Shown one piece after another: positions 29,052 to 40,226 of a stretch of 49,104 nt of DNA (positions are counted from its first letter, which is position 1; each line of letters opens with the position of its first letter). The notes under the pieces are model-generated. The model saw only the letters and a program-made list of their open reading frames with translations. It was not told the origin of the DNA and did not search any database. The position numbers and the translations under genes were made by a program. The stretch is from an uncultured Clostridia bacterium (GTDB lineage: Bacteria; Bacillota; Clostridia; Peptostreptococcales; Anaerovoracaceae), in NCBI GenBank assembly GCA_947426455.1, contig CANEEC010000003.1:1-49104 (forward strand), in the 5' to 3' direction.

Positions 29052-30002
29052 CTATTCTTTTGTCGCCTCAAGCTTTGAGGCGATTTCTTCTATTTTTTTC
29101 AATCGATGATTCAACCCCGATTTCGCCAACGGCGGGTCGGAAAGCTCCGCCAGCTCCGCCAGCGTCGCCTCCGGATTGGCAAGCCGCAGGTTTGCCGCCT
29201 CCATCAATTTGTCGGGCAACGACGCCAGCCCCCGCGTCCTTTGAATCTTCTCGATGGCCGCAATCTGCCGTCCCGCGGTATTCACCGTCTTGTCCAAATT
29301 GGCGCTTTCGCAGTTCATGATGCGGTTGGTCTTGTTGCGCATCTCCTTCATAATCTTGATGTTTTCAAAGGTCAAAAGCTGCCCGTGGGCTCCGAGAATG
29401 TTCAGCAGGTCGATGATTTGCTCGCTGTCCTTTAAATAAACCGCAAACTGTTCCTTTCTTCGGGTCACCTTGGCGTTGAGGTCAAAGCTGTGAATCAGCT
29501 TTCTCACGTCGGCGGCCAGGTATTCGCTGCTGCAGACAAATTCCATATGGTAACCCTTCTGGGGAGAGCTGATGGTGCCGGCGCCCAAAAAGATTCCGCG
29601 GAGATACGCCTTTTTGCAGCACTTTTTGCGGATCAGCTCCGGTTTGATTCCATCGGTGATGTAGTTGGAACCCTCCTTTACGCCCAGAATTCCCGTCTCC
29701 CGTAAAATCATCTCGGCGTTCATGTCCGGCGTAATGATCAACTGGTAAGCGTGACCCTTTTTCAGGGGCATGGCTTCCCCCACATTCAAATCGGCTCTCG
29801 TATCGAAATAGCTTTTCAGCAATTTGGCAAACAGTCTGGCCGTGGCCGGACTGTCGGTGGTCAGCCGCACGCCCATGCGTCCGCCCATCAGCGTAATGCT
29901 TCCGCACATGCGCAAAAAGCCGGCAATCTCCGCCAGCTGACAGCACTTCTTATCCACGCTGACCCGGGTCAGCTCCTGCTTCGTCTCCGAAGAAAATGAC
30001 AT
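29052..30002 (-). CDS. whiA: WhiA DNA-binding protein
   Basis: The 316-residue protein has the WhiA layout: a LAGLIDADG-like N-terminal fold (residues 1-195: MSFSSETKQELTRV, CCQLAEIAGFLRMCGS, KKAYLRGIFLGAGTIS) and a C-terminal helix-turn-helix (about 215-310: NRIMNCESANLDKT, NPEATLAELAEL, SGLNHRLKKI). It is a conserved Gram-positive regulator linked to cell division and, in Streptomyces, sporulation. ATG 30000-30002 has GAAGGAG 7 bases upstream. It usually sits directly after rapZ and yvcK; here kce intervenes and no yvcK is visible. Confidence 0.92.
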   Translation of the reverse strand: MSFSSETKQELTRVSVDKKCCQLAEIAGFLRMCGSITLMGGRMGVRLTTDSPATARLFAKLLKSYFDTRADLNVGEAMPLKKGHAYQLIITPDMNAEMILRETGILGVKEGSNYITDGIKPELIRKKCCKKAYLRGIFLGAGTISSPQKGYHMEFVCSSEYLAADVRKLIHSFDLNAKVTRRKEQFAVYLKDSEQIIDLLNILGAHGQLLTFENIKIMKEMRNKTNRIMNCESANLDKTVNTAGRQIAAIEKIQRTRGLASLPDKLMEAANLRLANPEATLAELAELSDPPLAKSGLNHRLKKIEEIASKLEATKE

Positions 30003-30052
30003 ATCGGCTCTCCTTCGCCCCAGGCAAACCTCGGCAACAACCAATCACATAC

Positions 30053-30115: not shown

Positions 30116-30946
30116 TTACTTCAGAGGAGCCAGACCCAGGATTTCACGAGCTTCTGCCGGAGTCGCAACCTCTCTGCCTAACAGCTTCGCCAGCTTAACG
30201 GCTTTTTCAACCATTTCGCCGTTGGACTTAGCTAACACGCCCTTTTCCAGATACAGATTGTCTTCGAAGCCGACTCTTACGTGACCGCCCATGGAGATGG
30301 TAGCCGCCGCAATGTGCCATGCGTTCTTACCAAGGCCGGTAGCCGTCCAGGTGGAACCTGCCGGAATGGATTCAACCATGTAAACCAGATCTCTTACGGT
30401 AGCGTTCATCTGCACGCCCAGTACGAAATCCCAGTGCAGGGGATGAACCAGCAGACCCTTCTTGTCAGCGGTCTTTAACGCCAGGTCGATCATACCCTTA
30501 TCGAATACTTCCAGTTCGGGTTTGATGCCTCTTTCCTTCATGATCTTGGCGAAATTGATGATGGTATCGTTGGAGTTGACGAAGATCTCGCTGCCGCCGA
30601 AGTTACAGGTACCGCAGTCCAGCGTAGCCATTTCCGGCGTGGGAACTACGTCGGTAGAAGCCAGTCTTTCCAGGTCGGTCATACCTACAGCGCCGCCGGT
30701 GGAGGGCTGAATGATAGCATCGGGGCATTCCTTTCTGATGGCGTCGATGCACTCCTGGAATCTTGCGGTATCCTGCGTAGGAGTACCGTCATCCCATCTT
30801 ACATGCAGATGGATCAGAGCAGCTCCTGCATCATATGCAGACTTTGCTTCTCTTACAATTTCTTCTACCGTATAGGGAACGGCAGGGTTCTGCTCTTTGG
30901 TAACTTCCGCACCGCAAATACATGCGCTGATAATTAACTTGTCCAT
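30116..30946 (-). CDS. kce: 3-keto-5-aminohexanoate cleavage enzyme (BKACE family)
   Basis: The 276-residue protein belongs to the BKACE family. The zinc ligands are visible as HLH (His 46 and His 48) and the Glu in GFEDN (residue 228), agreeing with the known Kce metal site (two His and a Glu). QPSTGG and HPLHWDF loops are in place. In lysine fermentation Kce condenses 3-keto-5-aminohexanoate with acetyl-CoA to give acetoacetate and 3-aminobutyryl-CoA. BKACE members vary in substrate, and no other lysine-fermentation genes (kamA, kdd, kal) are in this window, so the specific reaction is inferred. ATG 30944-30946 has AAAGGAG. Codon use suggests high expression. Confidence 0.8.
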   Translation of the reverse strand: MDKLIISACICGAEVTKEQNPAVPYTVEEIVREAKSAYDAGAALIHLHVRWDDGTPTQDTARFQECIDAIRKECPDAIIQPSTGGAVGMTDLERLASTDVVPTPEMATLDCGTCNFGGSEIFVNSNDTIINFAKIMKERGIKPELEVFDKGMIDLALKTADKKGLLVHPLHWDFVLGVQMNATVRDLVYMVESIPAGSTWTATGLGKNAWHIAAATISMGGHVRVGFEDNLYLEKGVLAKSNGEMVEKAVKLAKLLGREVATPAEAREILGLAPLK

Positions 30947-31030
30947 GTCAATCGTCTCCTTTTCAATGTTCTTCATTCTTTATGAAATACCCGTCTCTGC
31001 GACCGGTTTTCACTTTCTGGATATATTATC

Positions 31031-31146: not shown

Positions 31147-31998
31147 CTACGCCAAATCCCGATGAATGAGAATCGTCCGCTTTCCCTCTTCTTTGTAAAT
31201 TTCTGCGAATTTGTTGGCCATGGTCACGGAACGGTGCTGACCGCCGGTACATCCGAAAGCCAGTACCAGATGATACTTTCCCTCCCGGATGTAGTGGGGA
31301 ATCAGCTCGTTGATCAGCTGATGAACCTGCTTCACAAAGGCCTGGGATTCGGGAAACTTCATCACGTATTCCTGCACCTTTTTGCTGTTTCCGGTCAGGT
31401 TTTTCATGCTGGCCAGATAGAAGGGATTGGGAATGAACCGCACGTCAAAGACCCAGTCGGCTTCCTGAGGCATGCCGTGTTTAAAGCCGAAGGATTCCAC
31501 GGTGATGGTGAAATTCTCCTTGCTCTCCTCGCCCAAAAGCAGCACCTTCAATTCCTCATTGAGCTTTGCCGCCTTCATATTGGAGGTGTCCACCACATAA
31601 GTAGCCTCTTTGCGAATGGCCGACAGCCGCTTGCGCTCTGTGGCGATTCCCTCCTTGATGGAACCGGTTTTCGACAGGGGATGAGTACGGCGGGTTTCCT
31701 TGTAGCGCCGAATCAGGACGTCGTCGGAAGCCTCCAAAAACAGCAGCTGATACGGCGTATCGTGACGGCGCAGATCCTCCAGAACATTTTCCAGATCGGA
31801 AAAGAACTCGCCGCCGCGAATGTCCACCACAAAGGCCGCCTTTTCAATGGTCATCTTATCCTGCGCCGCTAAATTGACGAAATCCCGAATCAGCGCCGGA
31901 GGCAGGTTGTCGATGCAGTAGTAATTCATATCCTCGATGAAATGAATGGCCTGAGACTTTCCCGCTCCCGAAAGTCCCGTAACGATCAAAATCTCCAT
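31147..31998 (-). CDS. rapZ: RNase adapter protein RapZ (YvcJ)
   Basis: The 283-residue protein is a P-loop nucleotide-binding protein: Walker A GLSGAGKS (residues 8-15), a Walker B-like FVVDIRGG, and the C-terminal LAFGCTGGQHRSV motif of the RapZ family. In E. coli it links GlcN6P sensing to RNase E and GlmZ; in Bacilli (YvcJ) it binds GTP/UDP-GlcNAc and affects competence or envelope control. Its ATG is one base from the stop of the PHP gene, so the two are coupled. It is part of the murB-PHP-rapZ run. Confidence 0.95.
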   Translation of the reverse strand: MEILIVTGLSGAGKSQAIHFIEDMNYYCIDNLPPALIRDFVNLAAQDKMTIEKAAFVVDIRGGEFFSDLENVLEDLRRHDTPYQLLFLEASDDVLIRRYKETRRTHPLSKTGSIKEGIATERKRLSAIRKEATYVVDTSNMKAAKLNEELKVLLLGEESKENFTITVESFGFKHGMPQEADWVFDVRFIPNPFYLASMKNLTGNSKKVQEYVMKFPESQAFVKQVHQLINELIPHYIREGKYHLVLAFGCTGGQHRSVTMANKFAEIYKEEGKRTILIHRDLA

Positions 31999-31999
31999 A

Positions 32000-32809
32000 C
32001 TATTCTCCCCTTTCCAAATTCACCACCCGCTGCGGTTCCACGCCCGCTTCCAACAGGCGCGCAAGTCCTTCTTCGAAGCAGCCCACCCGCTCCGGCCGGT
32101 GGGCGTCGCTGCCGATGATGAATTTCACGTCGTACTTTGCCGCCCGCCGCAGGTTTTCCACCGTCAGATCCCGATGAAAGTTGTTGATTTCCAGCCAGGT
32201 TCCCGTCTCCTGACAAGCTCTGGCAACCTCCCGGATATCGCAGGGGGATTTGTCCCCCGGATGAGTAACCACCAGCGGCCGGTTCTTTAAAACAGCCTCC
32301 ACCATGCGCCGGGTATTGGCCGCAAACAACCCGCGGGAAACGTGGGCGGCGCTCTCGTCCTGCCGCTTGCAGTCCAGCTTCCGCTCAAGACGCTTACGGC
32401 CGCCCGACCGCTCCCACAGCCAATTTCCCGCGTGAAGAACCCCTGCGCCAAGAGGTTGTTCGCCAAACACGCCATAGTGATATCCGGCCATGACGTAATC
32501 GAACCGGCCAAATTCCTCGGCGGCCACATCCAGCCTTCCCGAAGCGTTGATGATGTTCGCCTCCACGCCGATGAGAATCCGGATATCGGGATACTTCTCC
32601 TGCAGGCGATCCCGTTCTTCCTTCAGCCGCAAAAGCGACTCCATGGGAAGTCCATAGGTTACGTGGCCGGGGCCGTGATTGGAAATTCCCACGGCCTTCA
32701 GTCCCCGCTTTCTGGCCGCCAAAACCACCTGCTCCACAGTGCTTACGGCGTGGGTAACTTCCCTGCCGCCCCGCACAAGCCGCGTATGAGTGTGAAGATC
32801 AAAAGTCAT
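32000..32809 (-). CDS. PHP-domain phosphatase (YcdX/HisK type)
   Basis: The 269-residue protein opens MTFDLHTHTRLVRGG and has the PHP motifs GISNHGPGH, ILIGVEANII, VMAGYHYG, VVTHPGDK and IIGSDAHRPE. The GSDAH ending and spacing resemble the YcdX/histidinol-phosphatase class. ATG 32807-32809 has GGTGG 4 bases upstream and follows the murB stop (32817) closely. The position between murB and rapZ is conserved in many Firmicutes, which points to a role tied to cell-wall precursor metabolism, but its substrate is unknown. Confidence 0.82.
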   Translation of the reverse strand: MTFDLHTHTRLVRGGREVTHAVSTVEQVVLAARKRGLKAVGISNHGPGHVTYGLPMESLLRLKEERDRLQEKYPDIRILIGVEANIINASGRLDVAAEEFGRFDYVMAGYHYGVFGEQPLGAGVLHAGNWLWERSGGRKRLERKLDCKRQDESAAHVSRGLFAANTRRMVEAVLKNRPLVVTHPGDKSPCDIREVARACQETGTWLEINNFHRDLTVENLRRAAKYDVKFIIGSDAHRPERVGCFEEGLARLLEAGVEPQRVVNLERGE

Positions 32810-32816
32810 GCGCCAC

Positions 32817-33746
32817 CTATCCAATGATGCGCACCTCCGGTTCTAACGCCACGCCGCTGGTTTCCAAAACCGTCTCCTGAACGATCTTCATTAAATCCAG
32901 AATATCCTGCGCCGTAGCGCCGCCCTCGTTGACGATAAATCCGGCGTGCATGGGAGACACTCTGGCGCCGCCCACCTGCAAACCCTTCAGACCGGCTTCC
33001 TCGATGAGCTGCCCGGCAAAATGACCCGCAGGACGCTTGAAAAAGCTGCCGGCGCTGGGAAGGCTCACCGGCTGCTTCTGATTTCGCTTTGCGTTCAGAT
33101 CGCTCATGGTCCGGCGAATCTGCTCGGAATCGCCGGACTTCAGCAAAAGCTTTACGCCGATTAAAATTTCATCGCTTTCCTGAAATACACTGCTCCGATA
33201 GCCAAAGATCAGCTTTTCGTCTCTGCGGTCGCACATCCTGCCGTTTCGTTTCAGCGCCGAAGTCCCGATGATCACATCCTTCATTTCGCCGCCGTAGGCT
33301 CCGGCGTTCATATATACCGCACCGCCCAGAGACCCGGGAATACCGCAGGCGAATTCCAATCCGGTCAGAGAGTGTTCCGCAGCGATCTTGGCAAGCTGGG
33401 ACAGCTTGACGCCCGGCTCGGCGAAGATCACGTTTCCCTCCACGAAAACCCGGCTCAAACCCTCGCCGATGCGGATGACCGCTCCGTCGTATCCCTCGTC
33501 TTTAAACAACAGGTTGGAACCGTTTCCCATGACCATGTAAGGCACCTTCTCCGCCCCTAAAATCTTCACCGCGGAAAACAGTTCCGCCATGGAACCCGGC
33601 TGAATCAGCAGCGCCGCCCTTCCGCCTGCGCGAAAGGAGGTGTACTGGCTCATGGCGCAGTCTTCCTCTAAATGCGTCGGATCCATTTCCTTCGCCAGCC
33701 TCTGCACGAGGCTGGCGTCAATGCTCTTCCATTCTCCCAATTCCAA
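32817..33746 (-). CDS. murB: UDP-N-acetylenolpyruvoylglucosamine reductase
   Basis: The 309-residue enzyme reduces UDP-GlcNAc-enolpyruvate to UDP-MurNAc, the second step of peptidoglycan synthesis, with FAD and NADPH. FAD-binding motifs MVMGNGSNLL and FACGIPGSLGGAVYMNAGAYGGE are present. Catalytic residues are visible as GYRSS (Tyr/Arg), GSFFKRP (the proton-donor Ser) and the C-terminal LEPEVRIIG (Glu). The start is TTG (33744-33746) with AAAGGA 5 bases upstream. It follows the degenerate Fic gene by 23 bases and precedes the PHP gene. Confidence 0.95.
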   Translation of the reverse strand: MELGEWKSIDASLVQRLAKEMDPTHLEEDCAMSQYTSFRAGGRAALLIQPGSMAELFSAVKILGAEKVPYMVMGNGSNLLFKDEGYDGAVIRIGEGLSRVFVEGNVIFAEPGVKLSQLAKIAAEHSLTGLEFACGIPGSLGGAVYMNAGAYGGEMKDVIIGTSALKRNGRMCDRRDEKLIFGYRSSVFQESDEILIGVKLLLKSGDSEQIRRTMSDLNAKRNQKQPVSLPSAGSFFKRPAGHFAGQLIEEAGLKGLQVGGARVSPMHAGFIVNEGGATAQDILDLMKIVQETVLETSGVALEPEVRIIG

Positions 33747-33769: not shown

Positions 33770-34519
33770 CTATATTTCGTCCTCTGCCGCAATTTGCAGC
33801 ATGGTTTCCAATTTGTTGTAGACCGCCCGCTCCATCACCCTGTAAAAGGGTAAAATATCCCGGCTGCGCAGGAAATTCATAACGCAGACGTTATACTCCT
33901 GTTCGCTCATGGGAATCACCGTCACCGGCAATCCTGCGCACATCATCTCATAAAGCAGAGCGTACCTGGCCAAATCCTCGGTTTTTTCCTCGAAAGGATA
34001 TGCCTCAAGCAGTCCCATGTGAAGCAGACACGCCCGCAGCAGCGAATTGGCCTGCGTCCCGTCGGGAAGCTGTGCTCCGTCCTCCCACTGCGCCACCCTG
34101 CCATACAGACCGTTCATCTCCGTTTCCAAATCGGAAAAGTGAGGCGGCAGATAATCCCACTGGAGAATCACCGGATCCCTGCGGCGATAGTGAGGCTCTT
34201 CCTCAAAGACCGCCCGGTACAACGCGCGAATTCCGCTGCTGCAAAGGAGGTCGTATCGCATCTCCTTCATGTTTTCCAGCTTGTTCATGGCCTGTGCGTA
34301 GGCGTGGAGCTTCAGGTGATCCGAAAGCGCCACGTCAGCGACGATTTCTCCCCGAAGGATCTTCTGCACGCTTTCTCGGGTCAGGGCGCTTCCGGAAAGC
34401 CGCAGGCAGGAAAAGACCCAATCCGCCCGATCGGTTTCGCGGAAAAAGGCGCAAAGCCGTTCACCGTAAGGTTCTTTGGATTTCAACAGCGCCATTTTTC
34501 GTCGGATTTCTCCGTACAT
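33770..34519 (-). CDS. Fic-fold protein with degenerate catalytic and inhibitory motifs
   Basis: The 249-residue protein follows the Fic layout. Residues 36-58 (LRLSGSALTRESVQKILRGE) align with the Fic inhibitory helix S-x-x-I-E-G-N-T-L-T-x-E-E-V, but the inhibitory Glu is Ser 42. Residues 157-195 (LLRACLLHMGLLEAYPFEEK then LARYALLYEMMCAGLPVTVIP) align with the Fic core, but the catalytic HPFxxGNGR motif reads YPFEEKTED (residues 174-182): the His, Gly-Asn-Gly-Arg are all replaced. It should therefore be unable to AMPylate. ATG 34517-34519 has GGGAGGGAG upstream. It heads the murB-PHP-rapZ run, so a scaffolding or sensing role in wall synthesis is an inference. Confidence 0.65.
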   Translation of the reverse strand: MYGEIRRKMALLKSKEPYGERLCAFFRETDRADWVFSCLRLSGSALTRESVQKILRGEIVADVALSDHLKLHAYAQAMNKLENMKEMRYDLLCSSGIRALYRAVFEEEPHYRRRDPVILQWDYLPPHFSDLETEMNGLYGRVAQWEDGAQLPDGTQANSLLRACLLHMGLLEAYPFEEKTEDLARYALLYEMMCAGLPVTVIPMSEQEYNVCVMNFLRSRDILPFYRVMERAVYNKLETMLQIAAEDEI

Positions 34520-34559: not shown

Positions 34560-34590
34560 ATTATATCATATACCGTCGTCCATTACGACG
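34560..34590 (-). promoter_or_regulatory. Promoter of the fic-like/murB run with overlapping palindrome
   Basis: On the minus strand TGA-TATAAT (34560-34565) is an extended -10. The perfect palindrome CGTCGT-CCATT-ACGACG (34574-34590) overlaps the -35 region, as an operator would. Confidence 0.55.
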
Positions 34591-39548: not shown

Positions 39549-40226
39549 ATGATGAAAAAACTCTATCACGGTTCCCAAACGATCATCGAACGGCCGTTAT
39601 TTGGATACGGCAAACCCTATAACGACTACGGTCTGGGGTTTTATTGCACCGACAGCCTTGAAATGGCAAAGGAATGGGGCGTCGGCAAAAATCGGGACGG
39701 TTATGCCAACTGCTATGAAATACAATGCGGCGGCCTGCAGATTCTTGACCTGAATTCGTCCGAATACTGCATCCTGCATTGGCTTACAGTACTGCTGCAA
39801 AATCGGGAATTTGACATTCCCTCCGCTTTGGCGCTGGAAGCAAAAGAATATCTGCTTTCCCATTTTTCTGTCGATTATGAAAACTGCGATGCGATAATCG
39901 GCTATCGCGCCGATGACAGCTATTTTTCCTTCGCCCAGGATTTTATCAACGGCACGATTTCCTACCGTCAGCTTACCAACGCCATGCATCTTGGCAAACT
40001 CGGCCAGCAATTTGTTCTCAAGAGCAAGGCCGCATTTGAGCGAATCCGATTCACGAACAGCGAAATTGCCGAAAGCAGTCAATGGTATGCAAAAAAAATG
40101 CTGCGCGATAGAACCGCCCGTCGGGAGTATTTCAATGTAGAGAGAAACCGCCGTCAGCGCGGCGATTTATACATCACACAAATTATGGATGAGGAGATGA
40201 TGCCCCATGACCCGCGCTTACGATAA
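39549..40226 (+). CDS. DUF3990 protein, putative ADP-ribosyltransferase-fold toxin
   Basis: The 225-residue protein matches DUF3990, assigned by sequence analysis to the ADP-ribosyltransferase fold. Conserved pieces: KLYHGS (residues 4-9, the ART His), PYNDYGLGFYCTDS (23-36, the second ART motif), DAIIGYRADDSYFSFAQDFI and a late QQFVLKS stretch. It lacks an obvious signal or membrane segment. The start ATG at 39549 has a GGAG 12 bases away, a rather long spacing, and the next codon is also ATG. The gene overlaps the DUF3791-HTH gene by 20 bases, the usual arrangement of a toxin and its antitoxin. Catalytic activity and target are not known. Confidence 0.8.
   Translation: MMKKLYHGSQTIIERPLFGYGKPYNDYGLGFYCTDSLEMAKEWGVGKNRDGYANCYEIQCGGLQILDLNSSEYCILHWLTVLLQNREFDIPSALALEAKEYLLSHFSVDYENCDAIIGYRADDSYFSFAQDFINGTISYRQLTNAMHLGKLGQQFVLKSKAAFERIRFTNSEIAESSQWYAKKMLRDRTARREYFNVERNRRQRGDLYITQIMDEEMMPHDPRLR

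What the first reader, a model, noticed from the sequence alone, without database searches (positions are those of the whole stretch)
33770..34519. Fic-fold pseudoenzyme in the murB-rapZ operon
The protein aligns along the whole Fic domain, yet the catalytic motif HPFxxGNGR reads YPFEEKTED and the inhibitory-helix Glu is Ser. Losing both together is what one expects when no activity remains to be restrained. Its place as first gene before murB, PHP and rapZ, with a palindrome-overlapped promoter, suggests a fixed role in wall synthesis rather than a decaying toxin.
Basis: partly seen in the sequence, partly recalled or inferred. Interest (0 to 1): 0.6.

Follow-up and report, generated by a model that had tools for sequence, protein, structure and literature searches.

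The report
Conserved degenerate Fic-fold protein family
An anaerobic bacterium and dozens of related genera carry a protein shaped like the Fic enzymes that attach AMP to other proteins, but its active site has been rewritten in much the same way in every relative, so it looks like a retained protein with a changed job rather than a decaying toxin.

Summary
ORF 33770-34519(-) is a full-length Fic-fold protein: AlphaFold pLDDT 92; all 44 Foldseek PDB hits at E<=1e-3 are Fic proteins; the family profile matches human FICD at 1.5e-26. HPFxxGNGR reads YPFEEKTED and the inhibitory Glu is Ser42. It is not local decay. Orthologues occur in roughly 170 of 350 searched genomes of its family (Anaerovoracaceae, judged by named relatives) plus a sister family; none of 77 nonredundant members has an intact motif. 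His is Tyr in 73/77, the GNG anion hole is gone, yet R112 and Y209 are invariant, R185 mostly kept, dN/dS about 0.1-0.3.

Two parts of the interpretation fail. Motif and inhibitory acid were not lost together: 48/77 relatives keep Asp/Glu there. Nor is murB the fixed partner: direct murB adjacency is seen in 16/70 loci; 22 have convergent argGH between, some precede argGH instead. argGH was lost in this genus, which explains the junction.

Best reading: a non-AMPylating Fic-derived binding/regulatory protein with a retained Arg-bearing pocket; main rival: an AvrB-like non-canonical transferase. In 11 of 21 relatives lacking R185 an Arg appears at position 42 (0 of 66 otherwise).

The parts
33770..34519 (-). 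Fic-fold protein without the canonical Fic motif, 249 aa
33965..34000 (-). position of the Fic motif, residues 174-185 YPFEEKTEDLAR (HPFx[D/E]GNGRxxR in true Fics)
34388..34411 (-). position of the inhibitory helix motif, residues 37-44 SCLRLSGS (SNAIEGN in true Fics); Ser42 at the Glu position
34184..34186 (-). Arg112, invariant in 77/77 and in true Fics
33893..33895 (-). Tyr209, invariant in 77/77 and in true Fics
34560..34565 (-). -10 box TATAAT of the presumed promoter, conserved in the genus
34574..34590 (.). palindrome CGTCGT-N5-ACGACG over the -35/spacer; right arm not conserved in congeners
32817..33746 (-). murB
32000..32824 (-). PHP-domain protein
31147..31998 (-). rapZ
30116..30976 (-). 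BKACE (beta-keto acid cleavage enzyme) gene
29052..30044 (-). whiA

Best explanation
The gene encodes a vertically inherited protein derived from a class II Fic AMPylase (inhibitory helix N-terminal) that lost AMP transfer at or near the base of Anaerovoracaceae and a sister family and was then kept for a binding task. Shown by sequence and model: Fic fold with the flap region, loss of the catalytic His and of the GNG anion hole, retention of R112, H167 and Y209, a near-fixed new Tyr174, purifying selection. Inferred: the old cofactor pocket, still holding Arg185 (or Arg42 in lineages that lost Arg185), binds an anionic small ligand or acidic side chain, and the protein holds or regulates a partner protein through its flap/target face without modifying it. 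The partner is unknown; murB/rapZ products are candidates, not demonstrated ones.
For: Fold: pLDDT 92.1, pTM 0.90; 44 PDB hits at E<=1e-3, all Fic proteins, TM up to 0.76. Uniform rewriting: Tyr at the His position 73/77, Glu at the last Gly of the anion hole 56/77, no Arg among the eight commonest residues at the first motif Arg, R112 77/77, Y209 77/77, R185 64/77. In FICD, changing His363 or Asp367 leaves about 4-6% activity (PMC4342408). The members form one side of a branch apart from true Fics, 100/100. dN/dS about 0.09-0.26 in the genus, near murB and PHP (synonymous sites near saturation). Pocket: Arg42 in 11/21 proteins without Arg185 and 0/66 with it, the strongest of 98 Arg-bearing positions tested, on at least three branches. 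Precedent for a FIC domain proposed to act without catalysis: BepC binding GEF-H1 (PMC7842960).
Against: No partner or ligand is known. Strict conservation of Tyr174 and of R112/Y209 would also fit an altered catalyst. The Arg swap is post hoc, rests on few independent events and on an alignment; related sequences inflate the Fisher test.
Confidence: 0.5

Rival explanations
1. Non-canonical transferase: like AvrB, the protein is an active Fido enzyme that uses another donor (for example a UDP-sugar), with Tyr174 and pocket residues in place of the Fic motif.
For: AvrB lacks the motif yet transfers rhamnose from UDP-rhamnose (PMC10866546) and keeps the Arg that organises the motif loop (PMC2686095). 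Here R112, Y209 and mostly R185, by alignment the counterparts of H. pylori Fic R50, Y132 and R107, are kept, and Tyr174 is near-invariant.
Against: Positions 42, 178 and 179 vary freely between lineages and R185 is lost in 13/77, more drift in the pocket than expected of a catalyst. Glu at the anion-hole Gly in 56/77 should repel a phosphate. No donor-binding motif is evident.
Confidence: 0.25
2. Dedicated regulator of cell wall synthesis acting on MurB, RapZ or the PHP protein.
For: MurB lies within 7 kb in 47/70 loci, same strand in 44; direct junction in 16/70, with gaps of about -40 to +120 bp, in several separate groups of genera.
Against: 22 loci have convergent argH-argG between FIC and murB, so the two are not co-transcribed there; L040, L041, L086, L121, L122 and L124 have FIC directly in front of argG-argH on the same strand; 26 loci show no murB downstream, several with ample sequence. 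The window genus has lost argG altogether, which explains the junction by deletion.
Confidence: 0.17
3. Antitoxin-like partner or antagonist of an active Fic paralogue.
For: Split Fic systems exist in which one Fic protein neutralises another (C. fetus Fic1/Fic2, PMC5651007). The window genome holds three other Fic matches.
Against: Several near-complete genomes have the family but no second match to its profile at E<=1e-3, e.g. G067 and G154 (98% complete), G006 (100%); no active fic gene was found beside it in the neighbour clusters.
Confidence: 0.05
4. Decaying remnant of a Fic toxin.
For: Motif lost; long branches in some genera.
Against: Open frames throughout the members read, invariant residues across dozens of genera, dN/dS far below 1. 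Fic genes with in-frame stops do occur, but in another family of the order (G524, G504).
Confidence: 0.02

Closest known systems
Class II Fic AMPylases (FICD/HYPE; B. thetaiotaomicron BT_2513, 3cuc; the order's Fics with HPFIDGNGR)
   Same: Whole-domain fold, N-terminal inhibitory-helix region, flap, R112, H167, R185, Y209
   Different: Catalytic His and GNG anion hole lost; inhibitory Glu mostly Asp or something else; Tyr174 near-fixed
AvrB (Fido protein without the motif)
   Same: Fic fold with the motif lost but the loop-organising Arg kept
   Different: No upper-lobe insertion here; chromosomal housekeeping-like gene, not an effector; no shown rhamnosyl transfer; different replacement residues
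Bartonella BepC FIC domain
   Same: FIC domain proposed to act by binding, not catalysis
   Different: BepC keeps HxFxKGNGRxxR with a single change and is a secreted effector with a BID domain
C. fetus Fic2 (degenerate core motif)
   Same: Fic protein with a degenerate core motif
   Different: Fic2 keeps the catalytic His and needs it for its effect; here the His itself is gone

Membership tests
Fic/Doc/AvrB (Fido) fold superfamily | Fic fold | tested here: met
   AF2 pLDDT 92; all Foldseek PDB hits with E<=1e-3 are Fic proteins
Fic/Doc/AvrB (Fido) fold superfamily | Sequence homology above chance | tested here: met
   Profile E 1.5e-26 to FICD; Pfam Fic in 20/21 members; window protein alone 14.3 bits, below the cut-off
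Fic AMPylases | HPFx[D/E]GN[G/K]R motif | tested here: not met
   YPFEEKTED here; absent in all 77 members
Fic AMPylases | Inhibitory [S/T]xxxE[G/N] (class II) | tested here: not met
   SCLRLSG in the window; acid kept in 48/77 relatives, mostly as Asp
Fic AMPylases | AMP transfer to a protein | not testable with these tools
   needs an assay
AvrB-type Fido glycosyltransferases | Upper-lobe insertion in the flap hairpin | tested here: not met
   249 aa protein aligned with true Fics without a large insert in the flap
AvrB-type Fido glycosyltransferases | UDP-rhamnose binding and transfer | not testable with these tools
   needs an assay
Fic toxin-antitoxin modules | Adjacent antitoxin gene | tested here: not met
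   No conserved small partner gene; conserved neighbours are oadA, mgtC, argGH, murB; ORFs under 90 aa were not examined

The most novel reading that the evidence does not exclude
A lineage-wide family of Fido proteins in Anaerovoracaceae with a Tyr-based rewritten active site that either performs a new transfer chemistry or senses an anionic metabolite through an Arg that has moved between two helices in several lineages.
Probability: 0.3. Interest if true: 0.7.

Novelty: new variant of a known kind. Interest (0 to 1): 0.45.

Why it matters
Fic-fold proteins without their motif are best known as single effectors such as AvrB. Here is a chromosomal, vertically inherited family in which the loss is old and uniform, so the question whether a motif-less Fic domain binds or catalyses can be tested on many natural variants, some of them from named species (Anaerovorax, Sinanaerobacter).

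Tried and rejected
Family-level decay (rejected: purifying selection, uniform rewriting). A link to arginine synthesis through the argGH neighbours (rejected: many genomes with the gene lack argG, including the window's genus, and many without the gene have argG). Regulatory palindrome (rejected: second arm not conserved). The genome-contig scan with the broad alignment A1 failed for want of a conserved stretch; the narrower A2 worked. One script stopped on an index error after printing the result used; one hmmscan call failed on a wrong frame and was repeated. No paper found in the held library that links Fic proteins to Anaerovoracaceae or to the rapZ-murB-whiA cluster.

Full report
Observation. 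The ORF at 33770-34519 (minus strand, 249 aa) is real and starts at the ATG at 34519. A single-sequence Pfam scan is weak (Fic, E 0.079, 14.3 bits against a cut-off of 24), but phmmer against solved structures finds human FICD over residues 33-245 at 7e-6, a profile of 16 orthologues finds FICD at 1.5e-26 and other Fic proteins below it, and AlphaFold2 on the window protein with 20 orthologues gives pLDDT 92.1, pTM 0.90, whose PDB matches at E<=1e-3 are all Fic proteins, TM-score up to 0.76. The motif HPFxxGNGR reads YPFEEKTED (residues 174-182) and the inhibitory Glu position is Ser42.

Extent. A first search found matches in 22 of 41 relatives. With the profile, 241 of 350 genomes of the family match at E<=1e-3; this includes ordinary Fic proteins, which in this family score around 1e-24 to 1e-31 and, where read, keep HPFIDGNGR. 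Counting by hand those at E<=1e-35 gives about 170 genomes. Outside the family, members occur in one other family of the order (f9: G032, G368, G379); the other order-level matches that were read are true Fics with HPFIDGNGR. In a class-wide sample of 391 genomes only two, both of the own family, pass 1e-46. Named carriers are Anaerovorax odorimutans DSM 5092, Anaerovorax sp. IOR16 and Sinanaerobacter chloroacetimidivorans, so the family is taken to be Anaerovoracaceae (inference from these names).

What was lost and what was kept. In 77 non-redundant members, His is Tyr in 73; Pro follows in 76; the Mg-binding acid position is Glu in 34 and Asp in 8 (Glu178 in the window); the three anion-hole positions GNG are variable, Ser/Asn/Thr (75/77) and mostly Glu (56/77); the first motif Arg is replaced by Ala, Glu, Met and others; the second (FICD Arg374; residue 185 here) is kept in 64. 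R112 and Y209 are invariant and H167 is kept in 76. By alignment R112, Y209 and R185 correspond to residues outside the motif that line the active site in H. pylori Fic (R50, Y132, R107; PMC2686095). The inhibitory position is Asp in 39 and Glu in 9. In FICD the inhibitory Glu234 competes with the gamma-phosphate for Arg374 (PMC4342408). Acid at 42 and Arg at 185 go together: 47 of 48 acid-bearing members keep Arg185, against 17 of 29 others. In an enlarged set of 87, Arg42 occurs in 11 of the 21 without Arg185 and in none of 66 with it; of 98 Arg-bearing positions this is the strongest association. On the tree Arg42 lies on at least three separate branches. H68 to Tyr also covaries. The simplest reading is a pocket that still needs one Arg; this is post hoc and rests on few events. 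The statement that motif and inhibitory Glu went together is therefore wrong for the family: the motif is lost in all, the acid only in some branches.

Selection and descent. Within the genus dN/dS of the gene is about 0.09-0.26 where it can be computed, near murB and PHP and above rapZ; synonymous sites are close to saturation, so these are rough. The members form one side of a branch against six true Fics, support 100/100; the root is not fixed.

Neighbourhood. In 70 loci (identities) the common order is moaA, oadA, mgtC (opposite strand), FIC, argH and argG (opposite strand), murB, PHP, rapZ, yvcK, BKACE, whiA. murB is found downstream with argGH between in 22 loci, directly in 16, with another gap in 6; in 26 it is not seen downstream, some of them on short contigs. 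In L040, L041, L086, L121, L122 and L124 FIC is the first gene before argG-argH on the same strand. The window genus has no argG (best hit 6.8e-6), so FIC next to murB follows from loss of argGH. The gene is thus tied to an old chromosomal block, not to murB alone. It stays in genomes with or without argG, so no link to arginine synthesis is seen.

Promoter. TATAAT and an upstream CGTCGTAA are conserved in four congeners counting the window (G000-G003; in G002 and G003 the first base or two differ); the second arm of the palindrome exists in the window only.

Function. Loss of the His and of the anion hole makes AMP transfer very unlikely (mutating FICD His363 or Asp367 nearly abolishes it: PMC4342408). 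Two precedents define the options: BepC, whose FIC domain is proposed to act by binding (PMC7842960), and AvrB, which lacks the motif but is a glycosyltransferase (PMC10866546). The variability of pocket residues other than R112, Y209 and Tyr174, and Glu in the anion hole, favour binding over catalysis. Steps shown: fold, loss, conservation, selection, synteny. Steps inferred: ligand binding, partner binding, regulation.

Noticed in passing
window 30116-30976: A BKACE (beta-keto acid cleavage enzyme) gene lies between rapZ and whiA and is found in the same block in 23 of 70 related loci.
   Followed up: partly
window 32000-32824: A PHP-domain protein of unknown substrate sits between murB and rapZ in about 41 of 70 related loci.
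   Followed up: partly
L172 (G524:C1:2192254-2192979) and G504:C9, G504:C62: Class II Fic-like genes with one in-frame stop codon in another family of the order, i.e. decaying or recoded copies.
   Followed up: no
window 39549-40226: Stand-alone DUF3990 protein, E 8e-42.
   Followed up: no
family alignment, residues 42, 68, 185 of window 33770-34519: Arg appears to move from residue 185 to residue 42, with His68 becoming Tyr, on at least three branches.
   Followed up: partly
L157, L158 (genus g36): Most diverged members, with Trp at the His position and Tyr at 185, on a very long branch.
   Followed up: no
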